A DNA stretch of 39,248 nucleotides from Candidatus Aminicenantota bacterium (lineage in GTDB: Bacteria; Acidobacteriota; Aminicenantia; UBA2199). The position numbers and the translations under genes are program-made. Position 1 is the stretch's first letter. Every line of letters starts with the position of its first letter. The notes below the pieces were generated by a model. That model did no database searches. It was not told the DNA's origin and saw only the letters and a list, made by a program, of their open reading frames with translations. This document shows positions 15,151 through 27,917 of the stretch, one piece after another. Location: NCBI GenBank assembly GCA_018262835.1, contig JADFDP010000017.1:1-39248 (forward strand), in the 5' to 3' direction.

Positions 15151-15849
15151 TTATGCCGACCGCGCCATTCCTCTTTCCCGGCAGGTCGGACTTTTACACT
15201 GGCCGCAAAATGGATACACTTCCGAAAACCGGTGGATGGCGGCCGGCCCGGCCACCAGCACACCGGAGATCGATTTCAAGGGACTCATCAGGAAGCTGGC
15301 GTTCAGACTGATGCCGATCCGCTCGGGGCGCAGGCGGGCGAACAGTTTTTCCTGGCCGCTGATGTGCCAGCCGCAATAACCGGGACTGTACAGCAAGGCC
15401 TTGAGCCGCGCGCCCTTCTTTTGCCCCGCGTCCCGGCTTTCCACCCATGCTTCAGCGATGCGCCCGGCCTGGTCGGCGGCCAGGGAAGCCACGGCGTCCA
15501 ATACCGAACCCAGGGCAAAATCGTCACTGGCGAACAGACGCTGGATCTCCCCGCTGATCCGGGCTCCCAGGGTGAAGGCGAAAAGGTGCAGGCGTTCGGC
15601 GCGGGGAAAAACTCCCGCCAGGGGCGTGGCCGGGGCATTCCGCCCCTGGCCGGCAAAGATGCCGGCAAACTCGTCCAGGCGGATGGGTTCGCTCACACCC
15701 AGCGGTTCGCTGCAGGAGTGGAACAGCTCCAGCGCCCGCTGCAGCAAAGCGGCCGAGCGAGTCGAAGGCCGGCTGCCGCTGGGCAAGCCCAGAGCGGCAT
15801 ATACGGCCGCTTCCTGGGGCTGCAGGCGCGAAAGCGGAAAATCGATCAT
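15151..15849 (-). CDS. Stand-alone MetH-type reductive activation domain protein
   Basis: The 232-residue protein, taken from the ATG at 15849 whose ATGA overlaps the mttB-like stop, resembles the C-terminal activation domain of cobalamin-dependent methionine synthase. Diagnostic segments are LLYSPGYCGWHISGQEKLF (about 152-170) and RIGISLNASFLMSPLKSISG (about 177-196). In MetH this domain binds SAM and, with a reductant, remethylates oxidised cob(II)alamin. Here it probably repairs the separate corrinoid protein. The C-terminus adds a cysteine cluster at C215, C218 and C223 (FCGQCKSPTC) that could bind metal or an Fe-S cluster; it is not part of the MetH domain as I know it. A longer in-frame start at 15918 lies inside mttB and is unlikely. 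Confidence 0.82.
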   Translation of the reverse strand: MIDFPLSRLQPQEAAVYAALGLPSGSRPSTRSAALLQRALELFHSCSEPLGVSEPIRLDEFAGIFAGQGRNAPATPLAGVFPRAERLHLFAFTLGARISGEIQRLFASDDFALGSVLDAVASLAADQAGRIAEAWVESRDAGQKKGARLKALLYSPGYCGWHISGQEKLFARLRPERIGISLNASFLMSPLKSISGVLVAGPAAIHRFSEVYPFCGQCKSPTCRERGMARSA

Positions 15850-17318
15850 GCTGTGACCGGGCGGACCGGGAGCTTTTCCATGCCCCAGCGCCGCGCTTCC
15901 GCTTCCATCAGCCGGCACAATTCCTTTTTTCGCTCGCCCGCCAGCCGGGAAGGAACATAGGCGCCGATCAGCCGCTCCACCTCCTGGTGGGCCCGCTGTC
16001 CCAGGGTCAGGCTTCCCTCTTCGCGCCAGCGGGAGAGATTGGCGCGGTCAATGACCCGGCCCGGGAAATAATGCTCCTTTTTCAAATGGCGGCGGGTGTG
16101 CGGGGAGATCAGCAGGTGCCCGTCGCGCAAAAGCTCCTCGAAAATCGGCAGGGCCGGGAAGTCTTCCCTGGGCTCGATGCCCTGCACCAGGCGCAGGGTC
16201 ATGCCGCAGATCTCATTGTCCAGGACCAGTTTTTCCAGGCTCTGGCAGCTTTCGAAATCGAGCATGCCGGGACCGGAGATGCTGTTAATCCCGGAAAGGG
16301 CGGCCAGGGTGGCCCCCATGGCGGTTTCCAGCCCGGCCTGGGCGTCGAGCAGCTTGGCGTCGCTCAAGGAGATGTAGGCCTGGGTGGGCAGGCCGAAGTG
16401 CTTGCCGATTTCGTTATAGGCGCAATCAACCATCTGGGTCTCCACCGCGCCCATGGGCGTGGTCTCGTAGCGCATGTCGAACGCGGCCGGCGAGCCGCCA
16501 TAGAGGACCGGCGCGCCGGGGCGGTTGACCTGGCTGATGACGATGCCGCTGAGCGTTTCGGCCGTATGCTGCACCAGGGTTCCCACCAGGGTGACCGGGG
16601 CCATGAAGCCGGAGAGAGGCATGGAAATGAATTCCACCGGGATGCCGGCCGCCCCGCAGTCGATCACGTTCTGCGAGGTGATCTCGCTCCACTTCAGGGG
16701 CGAGGTCGGGCAGCAGGAAAAAACAGTCAGCGGTTTTTCGCGTAATTCCTTTTCACCGCCGCGCACGGCCAGCTGCATGTCCCTCATCACCCGGAAGGAT
16801 TCGATGGTGAAGGTGCCGGTAACCACGGGTTTCTCGCCGTAGAGCAGGCTCAGGAAAAGCCGGTAGCTGTCGGAGAAGCGGTCGGCCACGTCGGCCGGGA
16901 TGAAGGCCGTGCTTTGCGAAGCGATATGGGACAGGCCGGACAGCAGCTGCGTGTAGCGGACATAGTCGGCGGTATCGGGCTTGCGGATCTGCTGGGTCTG
17001 GTAGTCCAGGACATGCAGGGCGGCCGAACCGGGGGTGAAATGGACCTTGTGCCCAGAGAAATCGTGGGTCTCGTTGCCCAGGACATCAAAAAGCTTGAAT
17101 GAATGCGGGACCGAGGCCAGCGCCCGGTCCAGCAATGCGGGAGTGTACAGGACCTGGTTTTTTTCAAAATCGACCTTGGCGCCGTGATCGGCCAGGAGCT
17201 TCAGGACGCGGGGATTCTGCACCTGGGTCCCCAATCGGCAAAGTAGGTCACGGGCTTCGCTCACTATGCGCGCCAGCAGTTCATCGCCCAACAGTCTCAG
17301 CTGCGGTCTCAAGGCCAT
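15846..17318 (-). CDS. MttB-family corrinoid-dependent amine methyltransferase
   Basis: The 490-residue protein belongs to the trimethylamine methyltransferase (MttB) superfamily. Family segments include FTPGSAALHVLDYQT, FSCCPTSPLKWSEITSQNVI, FISMPLSGFMAPVTLVGTL, GAPVLYGGSPAAFDMRYETT and DAKLLDAQAGLETAMG. There is no in-frame amber codon, so this is a pyrrolysine-free member, the group that demethylates quaternary amines (glycine betaine MtgB, proline betaine MtpB, carnitine MtcB are known examples). The substrate cannot be read from the sequence. It should pass a methyl group to the adjacent corrinoid protein. It is first in its operon, with AGGAGGCGAAACC before the ATG and a perfect-consensus promoter upstream. 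Its stop overlaps the activation-domain gene (ATGA). Confidence 0.93.
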   Translation of the reverse strand: MALRPQLRLLGDELLARIVSEARDLLCRLGTQVQNPRVLKLLADHGAKVDFEKNQVLYTPALLDRALASVPHSFKLFDVLGNETHDFSGHKVHFTPGSAALHVLDYQTQQIRKPDTADYVRYTQLLSGLSHIASQSTAFIPADVADRFSDSYRLFLSLLYGEKPVVTGTFTIESFRVMRDMQLAVRGGEKELREKPLTVFSCCPTSPLKWSEITSQNVIDCGAAGIPVEFISMPLSGFMAPVTLVGTLVQHTAETLSGIVISQVNRPGAPVLYGGSPAAFDMRYETTPMGAVETQMVDCAYNEIGKHFGLPTQAYISLSDAKLLDAQAGLETAMGATLAALSGINSISGPGMLDFESCQSLEKLVLDNEICGMTLRLVQGIEPREDFPALPIFEELLRDGHLLISPHTRRHLKKEHYFPGRVIDRANLSRWREEGSLTLGQRAHQEVERLIGAYVPSRLAGERKKELCRLMEAEARRWGMEKLPVRPVTA

Positions 17319-17526: not shown

Positions 17527-18894
17527 ATGAGCACAAATACTGAAAGACCGGTTGCGCGGCACAGATTGAATGTGCTGGTCGTCGACGATGAAACGAATAT
17601 CCGCAAGACCATTTCCCTCTGCCTCGAGATCGAAGGCTGCCAGGTGCGGGCGGTCAGCAACTTCGCTGATGCCGTGAACGAGATCAAACAGGGGGTTTTC
17701 GACGTGGCCTTTCTGGACCTGCGCCTGGGGACCAAGAATGGTCTGGATCTGATCCCCTATCTGCAGTTCCATTCGCCGCGGGCCAAGATCGTCATCATCA
17801 CCGCCTACGCATCCATCGACTCGGCCATCGAGGCCATCCGCAAGGGGGCCACGGACTACATCCCCAAGCCATTTACGCCGGCCCAGATCAAGATGGTTAT
17901 CGACAAGATCCTCGAGATCGGGGATATGCAGAGGCAGATCGAGTATCTCAAATCCAGTTTGACGGCCAGCATGCCGGAGATCGATTTTTCCACAAAAAGC
18001 ACCGCCATGCAAAAAGTTTTTTCCGTCGCTCGTGAGGCCGCCTCCTCCAGCGCCAATATTCTGCTCAAGGGGGAAAGCGGCAGCGGAAAAAGTGTTTTGG
18101 CCAAAGCCATTCACGATTGGAGCCCCAGGGCGGGCAAGCCTTTCCTGAGCGTCTCCTGCCCTTCCCTGTCCGTCGAGCTGCTGGAAAGCGAGCTTTTCGG
18201 CCATGCCAGGGGTTCATTCACCGGCGCGCTCAAGGACTTCCCCGGGCGGATCTCGCTGGCCCAGCAGGGCACGCTGTTCCTGGATGAGATCGGCGACCTG
18301 CCCCTGGCGATCCAGCCCAAGCTCCTGCGCTTCATCCAGGAAAAAAAATATGAGCGGGTCGGGGAAAATATAACCCGCAATGCGGATGTGCGGCTCATCG
18401 CCGCTTCCAACCTCGATCTGGGCCAGGCCGTCGCCCAAGGGAGGTTCAGGGAAGACCTGTATTACCGCCTGAACGTGGTAGAGATCGAAATGCCGCCGCT
18501 GCGGGACCGGAAGGAAGATATAGCGACCATCGCCGGCACCATGCTGCAGTTCTTCGGGCGTAGCAATCACCGGGCCTACAAGGGATTCACCATGGAGGCC
18601 CTGGAAGCGCTTACGAATTATCCCTGGCCAGGAAACCTCCGTGAACTGCGCAACGCCATAGAGCGCATCGCCATATTCTGCAGAACGGAAACGGTCGGCA
18701 GGGAATGCCTTCCCGATAAGATCTGCACCAGCGAAGAAGCGCCGCGTCTGGGCGACGCGGTCGAACTCGAAAAGATCGAGGAGGCCCATATTCGCCGCAT
18801 TCTGGCCTCCGCGTCATCCATGGAGCAGGCGGCGGAAACCCTCGGCATCAATACGGCCACCCTGTGGCGCAAAAGAAAAAAATACGGCATTTGA
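17527..18894 (+). CDS. NtrC-family sigma-54 response regulator, likely kdp activator
   Basis: The 455-residue protein has a receiver domain (about 14-125; D20/D21 pocket, phospho-acceptor D64 in VAFLDLRLG, lysine in YIPKPF). An AAA+ sigma-54 interaction domain follows (about 150-390) with Walker A GESGSGKS (182-189), Walker B TLFLDEIGDLPL and the sigma-54 contact loop GSFTGA (229-234, a Ser variant of GAFTGA). A Fis-type helix-turn-helix lies at about 414-455 (MEQAAETLGINTATLWRKRK). When phosphorylated it should drive open-complex formation at sigma-54 promoters. The next gene is a histidine kinase, followed by the whole kdp operon and preceded by a sigma-54 promoter match at 19018-19033. Kdp control is therefore the likely role, though inferred from context. 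Confidence 0.93.
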   Translation: MSTNTERPVARHRLNVLVVDDETNIRKTISLCLEIEGCQVRAVSNFADAVNEIKQGVFDVAFLDLRLGTKNGLDLIPYLQFHSPRAKIVIITAYASIDSAIEAIRKGATDYIPKPFTPAQIKMVIDKILEIGDMQRQIEYLKSSLTASMPEIDFSTKSTAMQKVFSVAREAASSSANILLKGESGSGKSVLAKAIHDWSPRAGKPFLSVSCPSLSVELLESELFGHARGSFTGALKDFPGRISLAQQGTLFLDEIGDLPLAIQPKLLRFIQEKKYERVGENITRNADVRLIAASNLDLGQAVAQGRFREDLYYRLNVVEIEMPPLRDRKEDIATIAGTMLQFFGRSNHRAYKGFTMEALEALTNYPWPGNLRELRNAIERIAIFCRTETVGRECLPDKICTSEEAPRLGDAVELEKIEEAHIRRILASASSMEQAAETLGINTATLWRKRKKYGI

Positions 18895-18922: not shown

Positions 18923-18955
18923 GCAAAATGCAAGGCCCGGCGCCGCATGGTTTGC
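18923..18955. promoter_or_regulatory. Imperfect inverted repeat, possible activator site
   Basis: GCAAAATGC (18923-18931) and GCATGGTTTGC (18945-18955) form an imperfect dyad about 65-95 bases upstream of the sigma-54 -24 element. That is a usual distance for enhancer-binding proteins. It is a candidate site for the regulator encoded just before it; no second copy was confirmed. Confidence 0.3.
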
Positions 18956-19017
18956 AAATTTCAATACCCTGCCGGAGAATCCGCATCAAAAAACCTGTCC
19001 ATAGGCCGTCACGGTTT

Positions 19018-19033
19018 TGGCAGGGTTCATGCA
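19018..19033 (+). promoter_or_regulatory. Sigma-54 (-24/-12) promoter of the histidine kinase-kdp operon
   Basis: TGGCAGGGTTCATGCA matches TGGCACGRNNNTTGCW at all but two constrained positions. It keeps the essential GG (19019-19020) and GC (19031-19032) exactly 10 bases apart. Transcription would start near 19044, about 10 bases before the kinase ATG at 19054. A sigma-54 activator is encoded immediately upstream. Confidence 0.55.
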
Positions 19034-19053
19034 TACTGTTTCACGGTGCAGGA

Positions 19054-20889
19054 ATGAAATTTACCATTCGACAAAAAATTTTAGTCGTTTTTGCCATGAT
19101 GCTGTTGATCACCTCCCTGATTTCACTGCAGAGCATCCGGCGCTTCAACCAACTGGGAAGGTCCATCGATGTGATATTGAGGGAAAACTATCGCAGCGTC
19201 ATCGCCTGCCAGCAGATGAAGGATGCCCTGGAACGAATGGACAGCGGGCTGCTTTTCATCCTCTCGGGCTTCATGAAGGAAGGCGCCGCTCAGATCGAAG
19301 TCAACCGGGGCCGTTTCAAAGAGGCCCTGCAAACGGAATTGAACAACCTGACCCTGCCCGAGGAATCCGCCCGGGCCACAGAATTGAAATCGCTCTTCCA
19401 ACTCTATGACCAGGGTCTCGATGAGTTCTTGCTATCCCAGCCGCAAATTCTGCGGCAACTCTATTTTAAAAATCTCTTTCCGCTTTTCAATGATGTCAGG
19501 GACAAGGCGGAGTCCATCCTGCAAATGAATCAGGAGAACATGAACGCCGCCAACAACCGGGCCCGGACCAAGGCCGCCGCGGCCCGGCGCGACATGTATT
19601 TTTTCCTGGGCCTTTCCGTCGGCATCGCCCTGCTTTTCATGCTGTTCAGCAACCATTGGATCCTGAGGCCCATCCGCCGCCTCATCGATTCCACCCAGGA
19701 GATCCGCAAGGGGAACCTGAACCTTGAGATCCAGGTGGATGCGCGGGATGAGATCGGCCAGCTTTCCGAAGCCTTCAATGCCATGGTGGCCAGCCTGCGA
19801 CTTTTCCGCCGTTCCGACCAGGCAAAGCTCGTGCGGGTCCAACGTTCCACGCAGGAGGCGTTCAAGAACCTGCCGGCAGCCATCGCCATCGTCAACACCG
19901 ATAACGTGATCGAGATCGCCACCGCCGCGGCCCGCCGCAATTTCAAGCTGGTTCCCAATACTTCGATCGAGCAGACCCCCTATCCCTGGCTGGCGGAAAT
20001 CCAGCGCAGCCTCGTGAAGAATCCCACCGCGGCCGGCAGTGAAAAAAAATATGAGATCATCCAGCAGTTCAGCGATAACCAGGAAAGGTTTTTCAGACCG
20101 CGGGTGATTCCCATTTTCAATGATGAAAGGGAGTTTAACGGCTCGATCATTATCCTGGAGGATGTCACCTTGCTGATGCAGAACGATGAGATCAAGAAGG
20201 ACCTGTTTTCCACGATCTCCCATCAATTGAAAACGCCGCTGACCTCCATCCGCATGGCGCTGCACCTCCTGCTCGAGGAAAATGTCGGCAGCCTGAACGA
20301 AAAGCAGGCCGACCTGCTGGTTTCCGCGCGCGATGAAAGCGACAGGTTGAACGGCATCATCGAAGACCTCCTCGATATCCGGCGTCTGGAGTCGGGAAAC
20401 GTCAGCTTGAGCCTGGCCACGGTTTCGCCATACCCGCTGGTGCAGGAAGCGGCCGACTCATTTTCCCGCCAGGCCCAGGACAAGGGCATCCGCCTGGAAA
20501 TCGATCTGCCCGCCGATCTGCCCGATGTATGCGCCGACCGCTCCCGCATCCTGTACGTATTCGCCAACCTGCTGTCCAATGCCATTAAATATTCCCCGGT
20601 CGGCGGCGTGGTGCGGCTGTCGGCAAAGCTGGAGGGAGATCGGATCCTGTTTTCCGTCACGGACAACGGACGCGGCATTCCCAGGAAATACCAGAAACGG
20701 ATCTTCGAGAAATTTTTCAGGGTACCGGGACGGAATGCGGAGGGCGGAGTCGGATTGGGCCTGAGCATCGCCAAAGAGATAGTCACGGCGCATCATGGCC
20801 AGATCACCTTCAACAGCGTCGAAGACCGGGGCGCTACGTTCTCCTTCAGCCTGGACCCGCAGGACGGTTTGCCTAAAGGAGGTTCATAA
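19054..20889 (+). CDS. Membrane histidine kinase with HAMP and PAS, kdp-linked
   Basis: From the ATG at 19054 the protein has 611 residues. A first membrane helix (about 8-24) and a second (about 181-199) flank a helical periplasmic sensor domain of the four-helix-bundle type. HAMP (about 203-255, WILRPIRRLIDSTQEIRKGN), a PAS-like domain (about 263-373), HisKA with phospho-His near 390 (FSTISHQLKTPLTSIRMAL) and HATPase (NLLSNAIKYSP, VTDNGRGIP, GVGLGLSIAK) follow. An in-frame extension to 18928 would cross the sigma-54 promoter and is rejected. It probably phosphorylates the preceding NtrC-type regulator. The TAA stop overlaps the next ATG (TAATG), locking it to the kdp genes. The sensed signal is unknown; potassium limitation or turgor is the natural guess. 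Confidence 0.9.
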   Translation: MKFTIRQKILVVFAMMLLITSLISLQSIRRFNQLGRSIDVILRENYRSVIACQQMKDALERMDSGLLFILSGFMKEGAAQIEVNRGRFKEALQTELNNLTLPEESARATELKSLFQLYDQGLDEFLLSQPQILRQLYFKNLFPLFNDVRDKAESILQMNQENMNAANNRARTKAAAARRDMYFFLGLSVGIALLFMLFSNHWILRPIRRLIDSTQEIRKGNLNLEIQVDARDEIGQLSEAFNAMVASLRLFRRSDQAKLVRVQRSTQEAFKNLPAAIAIVNTDNVIEIATAAARRNFKLVPNTSIEQTPYPWLAEIQRSLVKNPTAAGSEKKYEIIQQFSDNQERFFRPRVIPIFNDEREFNGSIIILEDVTLLMQNDEIKKDLFSTISHQLKTPLTSIRMALHLLLEENVGSLNEKQADLLVSARDESDRLNGIIEDLLDIRRLESGNVSLSLATVSPYPLVQEAADSFSRQAQDKGIRLEIDLPADLPDVCADRSRILYVFANLLSNAIKYSPVGGVVRLSAKLEGDRILFSVTDNGRGIPRKYQKRIFEKFFRVPGRNAEGGVGLGLSIAKEIVTAHHGQITFNSVEDRGATFSFSLDPQDGLPKGGS

Positions 20890-21058: not shown

Positions 21059-22786
21059 ATGGAAATCGGGAGTTGGCTGCAACTTCTTTTATTCATTGGT
21101 TTGCTCTTTCTGCTGACACGCCCCTTCGGCTCTTACCTGTACAAAGTCATGGAGACAAAAGAAAAAACGATTTTTTCGCCTGTCTTGGGCGGTTGCGAAA
21201 AATTACTGTTCAAAGCCCTGGGCAGGGACGTTGAAAAAGAACAAAGCTGGAAGCAGTACGGAATAGCGCTCGCCTTTTTCAGCCTGGCCGGCATGCTTCT
21301 GACTTATTTCGTTTTGCGCCTGCAGCATATCCTGCCCTTGAATCCCCAGCATTTTGCCGCAGTGGAACCATCCCTGGCCTTCAACACCGCAGCCAGCTTC
21401 GCTGCCAACACCAATTGGCAGAATTATGCCGGAGAAAGTACGATGTCGCATTTCTCGCAAATGGTGGGACTGACTTTCCAGAATTTCGTTTCGGCCGCCG
21501 TCGGCATCGCCGTGGCCGCCGCCCTGGTGCGGGGGATCGCCAGGAAAAGCGTCCGTACGATCGGCAATTTCTGGGCCGACCTGATCCGCGTTACCCTGCA
21601 TGTGCTTTTACCCTTGTCCATCATGCTGGCTATTTTTTTCATCTCCCAGGGCGTCATCCAGAATTTCTCAGCAGATGTCAAGGCGGCCTGCCTGGAAAAA
21701 CCAGCCGGCCGGGAGCCGGCACAATTCATTCCCCAGGGGCCCGTGGCTTCACAGGAGGCGATCAAGATACTGGGCACCAATGGCGGCGGTTTTTTCAACG
21801 CCAATTCCTCCCACCCTTTCGAAAACCCAACCCCTTTGACCAACTTTATCCAGCTGCTGGCCATTTTTCTGATCCCCTCCGCCCTGACCCGCTATCTGGG
21901 CTTGATGGTCGGTAACAAAAAGCACGGATGGGCGGTATGGAGCGCCATGGCCGTTCTTTTTCTGGCCAGCCTGATGGTCTGCTGGACGGCCGAAGGCAAA
22001 GGCAATTCCCGCTATCCGGTCCTGTCTGCGTCCAGCGGCGGCAATATGGAAGGCAAGGAAACGCGTTTCGGCATCTTCAACTCAGCTCTGTACGCCACGG
22101 TCACGACCTCTGCTTCCTGCGGAGCCGTCAACTCCATGCATGATTCCTTCACGCCCCTGGGGGGCCTGATGCCCCTGCTCAACATCCAGCTCGGCGAAGT
22201 GGTGTACGGGGGGGTAGGATCGGGCCTTTCCGGCATGCTGATTTTTGTCATCCTGGCCGTATTCATCGCCGGGTTGATGGTCGGCCGCACTCCGGAATAC
22301 CTCGGCAAGAAAATCGAGTCGGCCGATATCAAACTCTGCGTATTTTATATTCTGGCTTCTGCGATTTTGATTCTCGCTCCGGCCGCTTGGGCGGCAGCCA
22401 GCCGCTGGGGGGTTGCCGGCATAAGCAACCATGGCCCGCATGGATTGAGCGAGATGCTGTACGCTTTTTCTTCAGCTGCCGGGAACAACGGCAGCGCTTT
22501 TGCGGGTTTGTCGGCCAACACCCCGGCCTACAATACCCTTCTCGGCCTGGTCATGCTGGCCGGCCGTTTTTTGCTCATGGTCCCGGTCCTGGCCCTGGCC
22601 GGGAACCTGGCCGCAAAGAAAGTGATCCCTGCGGGCAGCGGCAGCTTTCCGGTCCACGGCATGACTTTCATCGTGCTGCTTGTCGGCACGATCATTATCG
22701 TCGGCTTGCTGACATTTTTCCCTGCCCTTTCACTCGGGCCGGTTGTCGAGCATTTCATCATGACCGGCTCCGGCAAACTGTTTTAG
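21059..22786 (+). CDS. kdpA: KdpA, potassium-channel-like subunit of Kdp ATPase
   Basis: The 575-residue inner-membrane protein is the potassium-binding and -translocating subunit of KdpFABC. The four selectivity-filter regions are visible: NTNWQNYAGE (about 117-126), LGTNGGGFFNANS (238-250), TTSASCGAVNSMHDSF (349-364) and AAGNNGSAFAGL (473-484). The glycines of the second filter (GTNGGG) are intact. About ten hydrophobic helices are evident. Length agrees with the family (about 560-580). It begins directly after the kdpF stop and is followed 12 bases later by kdpB. Confidence 0.98.
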   Translation: MEIGSWLQLLLFIGLLFLLTRPFGSYLYKVMETKEKTIFSPVLGGCEKLLFKALGRDVEKEQSWKQYGIALAFFSLAGMLLTYFVLRLQHILPLNPQHFAAVEPSLAFNTAASFAANTNWQNYAGESTMSHFSQMVGLTFQNFVSAAVGIAVAAALVRGIARKSVRTIGNFWADLIRVTLHVLLPLSIMLAIFFISQGVIQNFSADVKAACLEKPAGREPAQFIPQGPVASQEAIKILGTNGGGFFNANSSHPFENPTPLTNFIQLLAIFLIPSALTRYLGLMVGNKKHGWAVWSAMAVLFLASLMVCWTAEGKGNSRYPVLSASSGGNMEGKETRFGIFNSALYATVTTSASCGAVNSMHDSFTPLGGLMPLLNIQLGEVVYGGVGSGLSGMLIFVILAVFIAGLMVGRTPEYLGKKIESADIKLCVFYILASAILILAPAAWAAASRWGVAGISNHGPHGLSEMLYAFSSAAGNNGSAFAGLSANTPAYNTLLGLVMLAGRFLLMVPVLALAGNLAAKKVIPAGSGSFPVHGMTFIVLLVGTIIIVGLLTFFPALSLGPVVEHFIMTGSGKLF

Positions 22787-24831: not shown

Positions 24832-25413
24832 ATGAAAGCTTTGGCGGGTGAAATAAAAAGAGCAGCATGGGCCGTCATCCTGCTGACCATTTTATTGTGC
24901 GGGATCTATCCGCTAGCAATTTGGGGCATCGGGCAATTGCTTTTTTCGGAAAAAGCCAACGGGTCCATCTTGGTAAGGGAAAAAGGAATCGTGGGCTCCG
25001 TCCTGATCGCCCAGCGATTCACCTCGCCCGCTTATTTCCATTCCCGCCCCTCGGCCGTCGCCTACGCCAGTTCCGCAGCTGATTCGGGCGGCAGCAACCT
25101 GGGCCCCCTGTCAAAATTGCTCCACGATCAGCTAATGGCCCGGATAAATAACTATCGCAGGGAAAACGGGCTGGCAGCCTCTTTCCCGATCGCTGCGGAT
25201 GCGGTCAGCGCTTCCGCCAGCGGTTTGGATCCCCATATCAGTCCTGCCAACGCCTTCTCCCAGGCGGCCCGGGTCGCCGGGGCCCGGGGGCTGAGCCGGG
25301 ACCAGGTCATGAGCATGATCCGGCTCCACTTGGAAGAAAGGCAGCTGGGTATCTTCGGTGAAAAAAGGGTCAACGTGCTGTTATTGAACCTGGCCCTTGA
25401 CGGCCATGAATGA
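24832..25413 (+). CDS. kdpC: KdpC, accessory subunit of Kdp ATPase
   Basis: The 193-residue protein has one N-terminal membrane helix (about 12-36, WAVILLTILLCGIYPLAIW) and a KdpC periplasmic domain. Family segments are GSVLIAQRFTSPAYFHSRPS, SGGSNLGPLSKLL, DAVSASASGLDPHISPANA and QAARVAGARGLS. It stabilises the KdpFABC complex. GAGGAGAT precedes the start. Its stop overlaps the KdpD-like gene (ATGA), so the sensor protein is translationally coupled to the transporter. Confidence 0.97.
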   Translation: MKALAGEIKRAAWAVILLTILLCGIYPLAIWGIGQLLFSEKANGSILVREKGIVGSVLIAQRFTSPAYFHSRPSAVAYASSAADSGGSNLGPLSKLLHDQLMARINNYRRENGLAASFPIAADAVSASASGLDPHISPANAFSQAARVAGARGLSRDQVMSMIRLHLEERQLGIFGEKRVNVLLLNLALDGHE

Positions 25414-27065
25414 TGCGCGGATCGCTCTCGCTCATGAATGAAGACAAAGCGAATAAATTTCTGCGCCTGATCCAGCGTTCCGCCCGCGGGCGCCTGAAGA
25501 TCTATCTCGGCTATTGCGCCGGCGTCGGTAAAACCTACCGCATGCTCCAGGAAGGCCAGGCGCTGAAGAATGACGGCATCGACGTGGTCGTCGGCTTCGT
25601 GGAGACGCATGGCCGCGCCGATATTATCAGACTCCTGGATGGTTTCGAGATCGTCCCCAGGCGAGTCAAGGAATACAAGGGGATGAAGATGGAAGAAATG
25701 GACTTGGAAGCGGTGCTGGCCAGGAAGCCGGCCGTGGCGCTGATCGACGAGCTGGCCCACACCAACGTGCCCGAGAGCCGGAACGGCAAGCGCTACCAGG
25801 ATGTGCAGGAGATCCTGGCGGCCGGCATTCACGTGATCACGACCCTGAACGTCCAGCACCTGGAAAGCCTCTATGACACGGTCGAAAAGCTCGTCAAGGT
25901 CAAGGTGCGCGAAAGGCTTCCCGACTCGGTGATCGCCGAGGCCGATCAGATCGTCAACGTCGACCTGACTCCCGAGGACCTGAGAAAAAGGCTTGCCGAA
26001 GGCAAAATATACAAGGAAGACAAGATACGGCCCGCCTTGGAAAACTTTTTTATCCGGGCCAACCTGGAGAATTTGCGGGAACTGACGCTACGGGAGCTGG
26101 CCGCTCAGATCGACCTCCACCGCAAGGACCTGGAAAGCGATGAAAATACGGCCATGCCGGATCAGATCATGGTCTGCCTGAGTTCCCGCGGCCCGAACAG
26201 CGATTTTTTGCTCCGCTATGCCTCGCGCTTCGCCGGCCGCCTGAACAAGAACTGGTATGCGCTGTATGTCCAGACGGCGGCAGAAGATCCTCTGCAGATC
26301 GATATTCAGACGCAGAACGCCCTGGCCCGCACCTTGACGCTGGCCAAGCAACTGGGGGCGATCGTGTTCACCTACAAGGGCGAGGACCTGGCCAGCACGA
26401 TCTTGCGCTTTGCCCGGGAATACCATGTCGGGCACATCATTATCGGGTCTCCCAGCCGATTGCCATTCTTCCAAAGAATTCGGTTCAAAAAAACTCTTTC
26501 TGAAAGGCTGATCCAGGAGGCCGGGGGGATCCATATCGTCGTGGTGGATACCCATCCCCAGCGCGCCGTTGCGGAAGGATCGGAACCGGAAATCGCGGCC
26601 GGCAGCGCCGGCAAAAGGATCGGCCTATGCGACTTCCTGCCGCAAAACCATGTTCTGATCTGGAAGAACGCGGCGATGAAGGAGGAAGTGTTACGCGACC
26701 TGGCCCGGGCCGCGTACAGTACGGAGAAGGATCAGCAGGAAATTTTCACGCGCCTGCTGCAGAGGGAAAAGGAAAGTTCGACATTCTTCAATGAAGGAGT
26801 GGCGTTCCCGCACCTGCGGCTGGAAGATGATTCTCTCCCCAAGATCGCCTTGGGTATCATCCCCCGGGGCATTGTCGATGTTGTCACTATTGAACCGATC
26901 CGCCTGGTCTTTCTCATCGTGACTTCGTTGCGCCAGAGCGATGTCCAGGCAAAATTGCTGGCTGCCGCCAGTAAAATCGCCGGCAACAAACGCCTGGTTG
27001 ATATCCTGATTGCCGCAAAAAATCCCGAAAAGGCAATCCAGGAAATTGACAAATGGGAAGACTAA
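25410..27065 (+). CDS. KdpD-like sensor (KdpD-USP) fused to a PTS EIIA-like domain, no kinase
   Basis: The 551-residue protein begins as KdpD does: N-terminal KdpD domain (about 26-235) with Walker A GYCAGVGKT (34-42) and Walker B VALIDELAHTNVPESRNGKRY (109-129), then a UspA-like domain (about 250-380, IIIGSPSR). Where KdpD should continue with four membrane helices, GAF and histidine kinase domains (about 890 residues in total), this protein instead carries a type-2 PTS EIIA domain (about 410-548). The phosphorylatable histidine is present at H468 in EGVAFPHLR, and VFLIVTSLRQSDVQAKLLAA follows the EIIA pattern. In E. coli, EIIA-Ntr (PtsN) binds and stimulates KdpD, so the fusion joins known partners. 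It cannot autophosphorylate as a kinase. It may report to the separate kinase encoded upstream. Confidence 0.9.
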   Translation: MMRGSLSLMNEDKANKFLRLIQRSARGRLKIYLGYCAGVGKTYRMLQEGQALKNDGIDVVVGFVETHGRADIIRLLDGFEIVPRRVKEYKGMKMEEMDLEAVLARKPAVALIDELAHTNVPESRNGKRYQDVQEILAAGIHVITTLNVQHLESLYDTVEKLVKVKVRERLPDSVIAEADQIVNVDLTPEDLRKRLAEGKIYKEDKIRPALENFFIRANLENLRELTLRELAAQIDLHRKDLESDENTAMPDQIMVCLSSRGPNSDFLLRYASRFAGRLNKNWYALYVQTAAEDPLQIDIQTQNALARTLTLAKQLGAIVFTYKGEDLASTILRFAREYHVGHIIIGSPSRLPFFQRIRFKKTLSERLIQEAGGIHIVVVDTHPQRAVAEGSEPEIAAGSAGKRIGLCDFLPQNHVLIWKNAAMKEEVLRDLARAAYSTEKDQQEIFTRLLQREKESSTFFNEGVAFPHLRLEDDSLPKIALGIIPRGIVDVVTIEPIRLVFLIVTSLRQSDVQAKLLAAASKIAGNKRLVDILIAAKNPEKAIQEIDKWED

Positions 27066-27137: not shown

Positions 27138-27917
27138 ATGGTTGTTAAGAAAAAACTCTCATTGGGTTTGGGATTTTTGTTTTTCATCATTTTTATCCTG
27201 ACTATATTCTGTTCATTTTACATTGGGAAATTATCCCAGGAAGCCGGCAATATTCTGAAAGACAATTATAGTTCCCTGGTCTATTCAAAAAACATGACTT
27301 TATCACTTGAGAATCTAAGGACAGCCATCAGCAGCATCATCTTCAACCAGGCCGAGAACAAGAAAACATCCAACTACTACTGGCAGCTTTATGAAAAGGA
27401 AAAAACCGAGTTTGAAAAAAACTTGCAGGCGGAAAACAAAAACATAACCGAGATCCATGAAAACGAATATGTGGAGGAGATCAACAAGAACTATGATATT
27501 TTTTTGAAACTCTGCCAGCAAATAAAAACGGGAACCGGCAGCAGCATCATGTACTTCAACGAATTTCAACCCGTTTTTGAACAGCTGAAACACTCCATTG
27601 ACAACATCCATGAAGTCAATATGCAGGCGGTGGTGCGAAAAAGCCAGATGACCCGACATGATGCGGATAAAACCAGGAATTACATGGCGGGCATCGGGGT
27701 TTTTTGCATGATTTTGGCTTTTGCTTATTTTTGGTATTTTCCCCTCTATATTTCCAATTCAATCGCCTATCTGGCAGAAAAAATGAGACTATTATTGAAA
27801 AAATTGGGCATGCCCCTGGATAGTAAAACAGATGACGAATTCAACGTCATTTTACAGTCCATAAATTTGATAGAAAACAAATACGGCGGGGAAAAAAAGA
27901 CTCGAATCCGGGAATGA
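27138..27917 (+). CDS. Kinase-less membrane sensor protein downstream of kdp
   Basis: The 259-residue protein has two membrane helices (about 8-29 and 183-203) flanking a helical periplasmic domain, then only about 55 cytoplasmic residues resembling the start of a HAMP-like region. No kinase, methyl-accepting or cyclase domain follows. Its layout echoes the sensor half of the histidine kinase at 19054-20889, including ILKDNYSSLVYSKNM versus ILRENYRSVIACQQM at the same place. It may be a duplicated sensor module acting as a partner or decoy of that kinase. The stop is genuine, with no downstream frame continuing the kinase. AGGAGGAAAT precedes the ATG, and a possible own promoter (TTGACG at 27080-27085) lies in the 72-base gap. 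Base composition is clearly more AT-rich than in the kdp genes. Confidence 0.75.
   Translation: MVVKKKLSLGLGFLFFIIFILTIFCSFYIGKLSQEAGNILKDNYSSLVYSKNMTLSLENLRTAISSIIFNQAENKKTSNYYWQLYEKEKTEFEKNLQAENKNITEIHENEYVEEINKNYDIFLKLCQQIKTGTGSSIMYFNEFQPVFEQLKHSIDNIHEVNMQAVVRKSQMTRHDADKTRNYMAGIGVFCMILAFAYFWYFPLYISNSIAYLAEKMRLLLKKLGMPLDSKTDDEFNVILQSINLIENKYGGEKKTRIRE

What the first reader, a model, noticed from the sequence alone, without database searches (positions are those of the whole stretch)
25410..27065. KdpD sensory half fused to a PTS EIIA-like domain instead of a kinase
The KdpD (Walker A/B intact) and USP domains are followed by a type-2 EIIA domain with its phospho-histidine (H468), and the 4TM-GAF-kinase half is missing. 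In E. coli, EIIA-Ntr binds KdpD and modulates it, so the fusion makes a known contact covalent. It suggests potassium sensing coupled to PTS or nitrogen phosphorylation state, with output to the separate kinase.
Basis: partly seen in the sequence, partly recalled or inferred. Interest (0 to 1): 0.72.

Follow-up and report, generated by a model that had tools for sequence, protein, structure and literature searches.

The report
Potassium-pump off-switch kinase fused to EIIA
In a little-studied bacterium and in at least nine other bacterial groups, the protein domain known to switch off the Kdp potassium pump is fused to a sugar-relay (PTS) phosphate-accepting domain, so that potassium uptake may be tied directly to the cell's energy and carbon state.

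Summary
Window 25410-27062 (+) encodes KdpD domain - Usp domain - EIIA in one 551-aa frame, the last gene of a sigma54-RR / histidine kinase / kdpA / kdpB / kdpC cluster. The C-terminus is a genuine PtsN-type EIIA: Pfam PF00359 at 65.6 bits, confident model (pLDDT 92), best PDB match EIIA-Ntr (TM 0.83). His468 and Arg452 match the PtsN active site.

It is not a one-off. 62 of 66 homologous loci carry the same fusion in one frame, in Aminicenantes, Desulfobacterota, Hydrogenedentota, Fibrobacterota, Planctomycetota, Lentisphaerota and others. All fusions fall in one fully supported clade. The active His is conserved in 66/66 and the Arg in 65/66. The genome has HPr, EI, HprK and a diadenylate cyclase.

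The KdpD domain is itself a kinase: in E. coli it phosphorylates KdpB Ser162 and stops the pump (PMC11018627). PtsN's known contact sites on KdpD (HisKA, GAF) are absent here. Best explanation: a PTS-gated serine kinase that switches off KdpFABC post-translationally, with transcription left to the separate HK/sigma54 pair. No published description was found. New variant of a known kind; activity and sign of regulation are untested.

The parts
25410..27062 (+). fused gene KdpD-Usp-EIIA, 551 aa (likely true start ATG 25434); overlaps the kdpC stop
25485..26111 (+). KdpD domain (residues 26-234), atypical serine kinase domain
   Evidence: PF02702 2.5e-93; PDB 2r8r match 3.3e-65
25509..25535 (+). 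Walker A G34-YCAGV-GKT42
   Evidence: aligned to E. coli KdpD G30..T38; invariant GKT 61/61
25746..25760 (+). Walker B region D113-E-L-A-H117 (E. coli D109-H113)
   Evidence: D 62/62, H 62/62
26160..26546 (+). Usp-like domain (residues ~251-379), possible c-di-AMP site S259...Y286
   Evidence: weak Pfam Usp, NF038185/PRK10490 coverage, motif columns
26634..27053 (+). EIIA domain, PtsN-like (residues 409-548)
   Evidence: PF00359 65.6 bits, fold match 1a6j TM 0.83
26811..26813 (+). codon of His468, phospho-acceptor (PtsN H73)
   Evidence: 66/66 in the family
26763..26765 (+). codon of Arg452, active-site Arg (PtsN R57)
   Evidence: 65/66
26946..26948 (+). codon of Gln513 in place of the second His (PtsN H120)
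   Evidence: Q 52, H 13, N 1 of 66
17527..18894 (+). NtrC-type sigma54 response regulator
   Evidence: Response_reg + Sigma54_activat + HTH_8
18928..20889 (+). membrane histidine kinase, 4HB-HAMP-PAS-HisKA-HATPase, not KdpD-derived (start probably 19054)
21059..22786 (+). kdpA
   Evidence: TIGR00680 725 bits
22799..24820 (+). kdpB; TGES Ser156 = E. coli Ser162, codon 23264-23266
   Evidence: TIGR01497 1006 bits; motif
24832..25413 (+). kdpC
   Evidence: TIGR00681 198 bits

Best explanation
The protein is a short, cytoplasmic KdpD/Usp-type regulator of the KdpABC potassium pump that has acquired a PtsN-type EIIA as an extra input domain. Proposed working: the PTS relay (PEP -> EI -> HPr, itself tunable by HprK) phosphorylates His468; the phosphorylation state of the EIIA alters the KdpD-domain serine kinase; that kinase phosphorylates the TGES serine of KdpB (Ser156) and stops the pump. 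K+ status probably enters through c-di-AMP at the Usp domain, and kdp transcription is run separately by the neighbouring HK and sigma54 regulator. Shown by sequence: the architecture, EIIA fold, intact catalytic residues, PTS and DAC genes, conserved operon. Taken from published work on homologues: serine-kinase activity on KdpB and c-di-AMP stimulation of a short KdpD/Usp. Inferred only: that His468 is phosphorylated, that it gates the kinase, and the sign. By analogy with E. coli, where dephospho-PtsN promotes Kdp, dephospho-EIIA would keep the pump on.
For: EIIA identity and fold. Phospho-His 66/66 and Arg 65/66 across at least nine phyla while the second His drifts to Gln, compatible with an EIIA that accepts phosphate but need not donate it. 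Kinase motif GKT 61/61, Walker B D 62/62, R190 62/62. The fusion gene lies behind kdpC in 51 of 57 loci with at least 500 bases upstream, and last in the kdp cluster of Aminicenantia. KdpD NTD alone phosphorylates KdpB S162; HK-less KdpDs occur mainly without KdpE; a short KdpD/Usp is c-di-AMP stimulated (PMC11018627). HPr, EI and DAC in 20/20 genomes of the first set (18 of them fused), EI in 48/50 of the second. HPr carries LGLHARAA and NAKSLLGIL sites. All fusions lie in one 100% clade, so the combination has been kept while spreading.
Against: No biochemistry exists for any fusion that I could find. Adenine-contact Trp39 of E. coli KdpD is Tyr in most. The TGES serine is common to P-type ATPases, so its presence proves little. 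EI is also in 18/18 of a second set of genomes with unfused KdpD/Usp and in 26/50 unfused Acidobacteriota ones, so EI co-occurrence does not discriminate. EIIA is missing in about four lineages of the clade even though EI is present, so it is not essential. The full-length model is too poor (pLDDT 62) to show domain contacts.
Confidence: 0.55

Rival explanations
1. The fused EIIA acts in trans on the operon's histidine kinase: dephospho-EIIA binds its HisKA domain and changes phosphotransfer to the sigma54 regulator, so the fusion links PTS state to kdp transcription.
For: In E. coli PtsN binds the KdpD HisKA/transmitter (PMC9239096); an HK related to the window's lies near the fusion in 39 of 44 loci with at least 6 kb upstream (counted from the output).
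Against: The same HK and regulator accompany unfused KdpD/Usp proteins (L198, L200, L202), so the HK does not depend on the EIIA. The related HKs are only about 25-32% like the KdpD transmitter.
Confidence: 0.2
2. The EIIA is a structural or docking add-on (for example for KdpB or TrkA-like partners) that is not controlled by PTS phosphorylation.
For: EIIA is dispensable in some lineages; many regulatory EIIA contacts in E. coli are made by the unphosphorylated form (PMC13104625).
Against: Strict conservation of the His/Arg phosphorylation site (66/66 and 65/66) and presence of EI in nearly all fused genomes.
Confidence: 0.15
3. Information also flows the other way: the EIIA takes phosphate from P~HPr and so shifts PTS output when Kdp is abundant, reporting K+ state to the PTS.
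For: A regulatory PTS with HprK and EIIA-Man lies in the genome.
Against: The protein should be scarce relative to HPr; no data.
Confidence: 0.05

Closest known systems
Short KdpD/Usp regulators such as D. geothermalis KdpD (PMC11018627)
   Same: KdpD serine-kinase domain plus Usp, no TM/GAF/histidine-kinase half, tied to the kdp operon
   Different: Has an additional PtsN-like EIIA of ~140 residues; encoded with a sigma54 RR/HK pair; not tested for activity
D. vulgaris DVU3334-DVU3339 kdp operon (PMC3333781)
   Same: its own response regulator, a separate HK and a KdpD/Usp ORF in the kdp operon
E. coli PtsN (EIIA-Ntr) acting on KdpD
   Same: EIIA fold, Arg/His active site, link to Kdp regulation
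   Different: PtsN is a separate protein that binds the HisKA domain of a full KdpD; here EIIA is fused to a KdpD without that domain, and the second His is Gln
NCBIfam NF038185 KdpD_non_kinase
   Same: 357 bits over residues 14-379
   Different: Below the curated cut-off (550 bits); the model ends at 373 positions and has no EIIA

Membership tests
KdpD/Usp atypical serine kinase (short KdpD) | KdpD domain with G-x5-GKT Walker A and Walker B Asp | tested here: met
KdpD/Usp atypical serine kinase (short KdpD) | Trp39/Arg190 adenine pair | tested here: inconclusive
   Arg190 62/62; Trp39 is Tyr here and in 48 of the aligned sequences
KdpD/Usp atypical serine kinase (short KdpD) | no DHp/CA histidine kinase domains | tested here: met
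   Pfam scan
KdpD/Usp atypical serine kinase (short KdpD) | phosphorylates KdpB TGES Ser | not testable with these tools
   target Ser156 present
KdpD/Usp atypical serine kinase (short KdpD) | c-di-AMP response through Usp (S. aureus SXS-X20-FTAXY motif) | tested here: inconclusive
   S259 and Y286 match Sa S244/Y271, G261 and W282 do not; R269-x3-R273-x8-W-x-A-x-Y matches the E. coli type; DAC present
NCBIfam NF038185 KdpD_non_kinase | score above curated cut-off | tested here: not met
   357 against 550 bits
Full-length KdpD sensor histidine kinase (NF007793) | 4 TM, GAF, HisKA, HATPase | tested here: not met
   360 against 1123 bits
PTS EIIA type 2 (PF00359) | profile score above gathering cut-off | tested here: met
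   65.6 against 27 bits
PTS EIIA type 2 (PF00359) | EIIA-Ntr/Mtl fold | tested here: met
   1a6j TM 0.83, E 2.1e-8
PTS EIIA type 2 (PF00359) | active-site His and Arg (PtsN H73, R57) | tested here: met
   H468, R452; 66/66 and 65/66
PTS EIIA type 2 (PF00359) | phosphorylated by HPr | not testable with these tools
   HPr, EI present
PtsN proper (TIGR01419) | equivalog cut-off and second His (H120) | tested here: not met
   31.7 against 138.7 bits; Gln513. Stand-alone EIIAs of related genomes also vary at this site, H 9/20

The most novel reading that the evidence does not exclude
A family of PTS-gated serine kinases, arisen by one fusion and spread with its kdp operon across at least nine phyla, ties the post-translational shut-off of the high-affinity K+ pump directly to the PEP/pyruvate (and HprK) state of the cell, probably combined with c-di-AMP in the same molecule.
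Probability: 0.45. Interest if true: 0.75.

Novelty: new variant of a known kind. Interest (0 to 1): 0.6.

Why it matters
Why regulatory PTS proteins control potassium transport is an old open question (PMC13104625 speaks of discrepant mechanistic models). Here the link is built into one predicted soluble protein with a known kinase domain, a known target and a defined phospho-site, so the question can be tested with a handful of purified components. If shown, it would be a serine kinase with a PTS EIIA as its regulatory domain, and it points to a route for carbon/energy control of ion uptake in uncultured groups such as Aminicenantes.

Tried and rejected
Sigma54 promoter upstream of kdpA or the regulator: pattern scan at chance level and no consistent site in 13 intergenic regions; dropped. 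EI co-occurrence as proof of PTS coupling: nearly all fused genomes have EI against 26/50 unfused Acidobacteriota, but 18/18 of a second unfused set, mostly from the Syntrophaceae phylum, also have EI, so it was demoted to 'machinery available'. Second His to Gln as a signature of the fusion: stand-alone EIIAs also vary, and the NM-IIANtr structure paper doubts a role for that His (PMC1201152), so only weak. Loss of EIIA explained by loss of EI: rejected. Full-length AlphaFold model: too poor to use. D. radiodurans KdpD/Usp as a motif standard for c-di-AMP: too divergent, lacks the Tyr. Assembly or frameshift artefact: rejected by conservation in many independent genomes; L107 and L128 are frame-broken copies and were not counted as intact. 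Plasmid collection: 436 records with KdpD, none with a match covering 80% of the query. Eight literature searches found no description of a KdpD-EIIA fusion; most subscription papers and all supplements were out of reach.

Full report
Observation. The frame 25410-27065 (+) encodes 551 residues. Pfam assigns KdpD (26-234, 2.5e-93) and PTS_EIIA_2 (409-548, 6.3e-18, far above cut-off); Usp is weak, but KdpD models run on to residue 379-391. The start is probably Met9 (25434), where relatives begin. The EIIA profile built from 17 relatives hits E. coli EIIA-Ntr in the PDB at 6.8e-15. AlphaFold on the C-terminal 152 residues gives pLDDT 92, and Foldseek returns EIIA-Ntr structures first (1a6j TM 0.83). 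H468 and R452 sit on PtsN H73 and R57; the second His H120 is Gln513.

Surroundings. Upstream lie a sigma54-type response regulator, a membrane histidine kinase with HAMP, PAS, HisKA and HATPase domains, and kdpA, kdpB, kdpC. The same order with the fusion last was found in Aminicenantia genomes with enough flank. The HK is not a detached KdpD half; its best profile matches are PnpS and WalK. KdpB has the TGES motif, with Ser156 matching E. coli Ser162, though this motif is general to P-type ATPases.

The genome. The window's close relatives are named Candidatus Aminicenantes or Acidobacteria, so the class is taken to be Aminicenantia. The genome holds an hpf - HprK - EIIA-Man - HPr - EI cluster, a stand-alone EIIA and a diadenylate cyclase. 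HPr has the phospho-His (LGLHARAA) and the HprK serine (NAKSLLGIL), and EI has its GGETSH site. So every part needed to phosphorylate H468 is present.

How common. In the class, 18 of 142 genomes held have a fusion-type match (one cut at a contig end, one frame-broken) in three families. In a sample of 396 genomes of the phylum all fusions are in this class; other KdpDs stop near residue 380-390 or continue as full kinases. A scan of 84,980 species genomes with the EIIA alignment gave 66 loci, and 62 of these have KdpD, Usp and EIIA in one frame. Record titles name Aminicenantes, Hydrogenedentota, Syntrophaceae, Desulfomonile and other deltaproteobacteria, Krumholzibacteriia, Schekmanbacteria, Fibrobacteria, Planctomycetota, Lentisphaeria and Oligoflexaceae. 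The scan used one short peptide pattern, so this is a lower bound. A sample of 395 genomes of the Syntrophaceae phylum has about 21 full fusions among 73 genomes with KdpD, and seven loci with close KdpD/Usp proteins (61-66% identical) lacking EIIA.

Conservation. Over 66 sequences the phospho-His is invariant, the Arg is 65/66, and the second His position is Gln 52, His 13, Asn 1. Walker A GKT is 61/61, Walker B Asp 62/62, Arg190 62/62; Trp39 is mostly Tyr. A domain kept by chance would not hold its catalytic pair across this range.

History. In trees of the KdpD-Usp part, all fusions fall in one 100%-supported clade (quick method, SH-aLRT only). With the first sample this needs two changes of state. 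Adding the close unfused proteins, it needs five, for example one gain and four losses, as deep branches of the clade (Fibrobacterota, Planctomycetota, Schekmanbacteria) are fused. The unfused relatives keep the same HK, regulator and kdpABC neighbours, so the module exists without the EIIA. The species pattern points to transfer between phyla, though binning errors in metagenome-assembled genomes could explain single cases.

Mechanism. PMC11018627 (2024) shows that the KdpD N-terminal domain alone phosphorylates KdpB Ser162 and stops the pump, that HK-less KdpDs occur mainly where KdpE is missing, and that a short KdpD/Usp responds to c-di-AMP, not K+. Its main text does not mention EIIA. PtsN contacts KdpD at HisKA in E. 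coli and at GAF in S. fredii (PMC9239096); which phosphorylation form is active differs between species (PMC13104625). As both contact sites are absent here, the fused EIIA must act on something else; the nearest candidate is the attached serine kinase. Hence the proposal of a PTS-gated off-switch. The neighbouring HK remains a possible second target.

The Usp motif is mixed. Ser259 and Tyr286 match the S. aureus residues shown to matter for c-di-AMP, while R269-x3-R273-x8-W282 matches the E. coli type. c-di-AMP input is therefore plausible and unproven.

Limits. PTS presence is not specific to fusions: EI is in all 20 genomes of the first set, 18 of them fused, in 48/50 fused genomes of the second, in 26/50 unfused Acidobacteriota and in 18/18 of a second unfused set. 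The full-length model is unusable. No sigma54 promoter was found. The closest published precedent for the operon is D. vulgaris DVU3334-3339, with its own response regulator and a separate KdpD/Usp ORF (PMC3333781).

Verdict. Real, conserved over several phyla, apparently undescribed as a family, and mechanistically testable, but assembled from known parts: a new variant of a known kind.

Noticed in passing
window 27138-27917 (+): 259-aa membrane protein without Pfam/NCBIfam match, distantly similar (19%, E 4e-5) to the input half of the operon's histidine kinase; homologues flank the fusion in L079, L084, L088, L089 and an unfused KdpD/Usp in L203. Possibly a stand-alone sensor partner or decoy.
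   Followed up: partly
window 15846-17318 (-): MttB-family trimethylamine methyltransferase-like protein, below the pyrrolysine-type equivalog cut-off (355 against 525 bits).
   Followed up: no
L205 (G582:C240) and L204 (G582:C289): One genome carries both a KdpD-Usp-EIIA fusion and an unfused KdpD/Usp copy with its own HK and sigma54 regulator: a natural pair for comparison (binning not checked).
   Followed up: partly
L092:1652-3736, L093:8994-11018: Two genomes of another family of the class have KdpD-Usp followed by DUF4118 and a tail without kinase domains: another HK-less KdpD type, outside the fusion clade.
   Followed up: partly
L107 (G491), L128 (G487): Fusion genes broken into two frames; sequencing error or decay not distinguished.
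   Followed up: no
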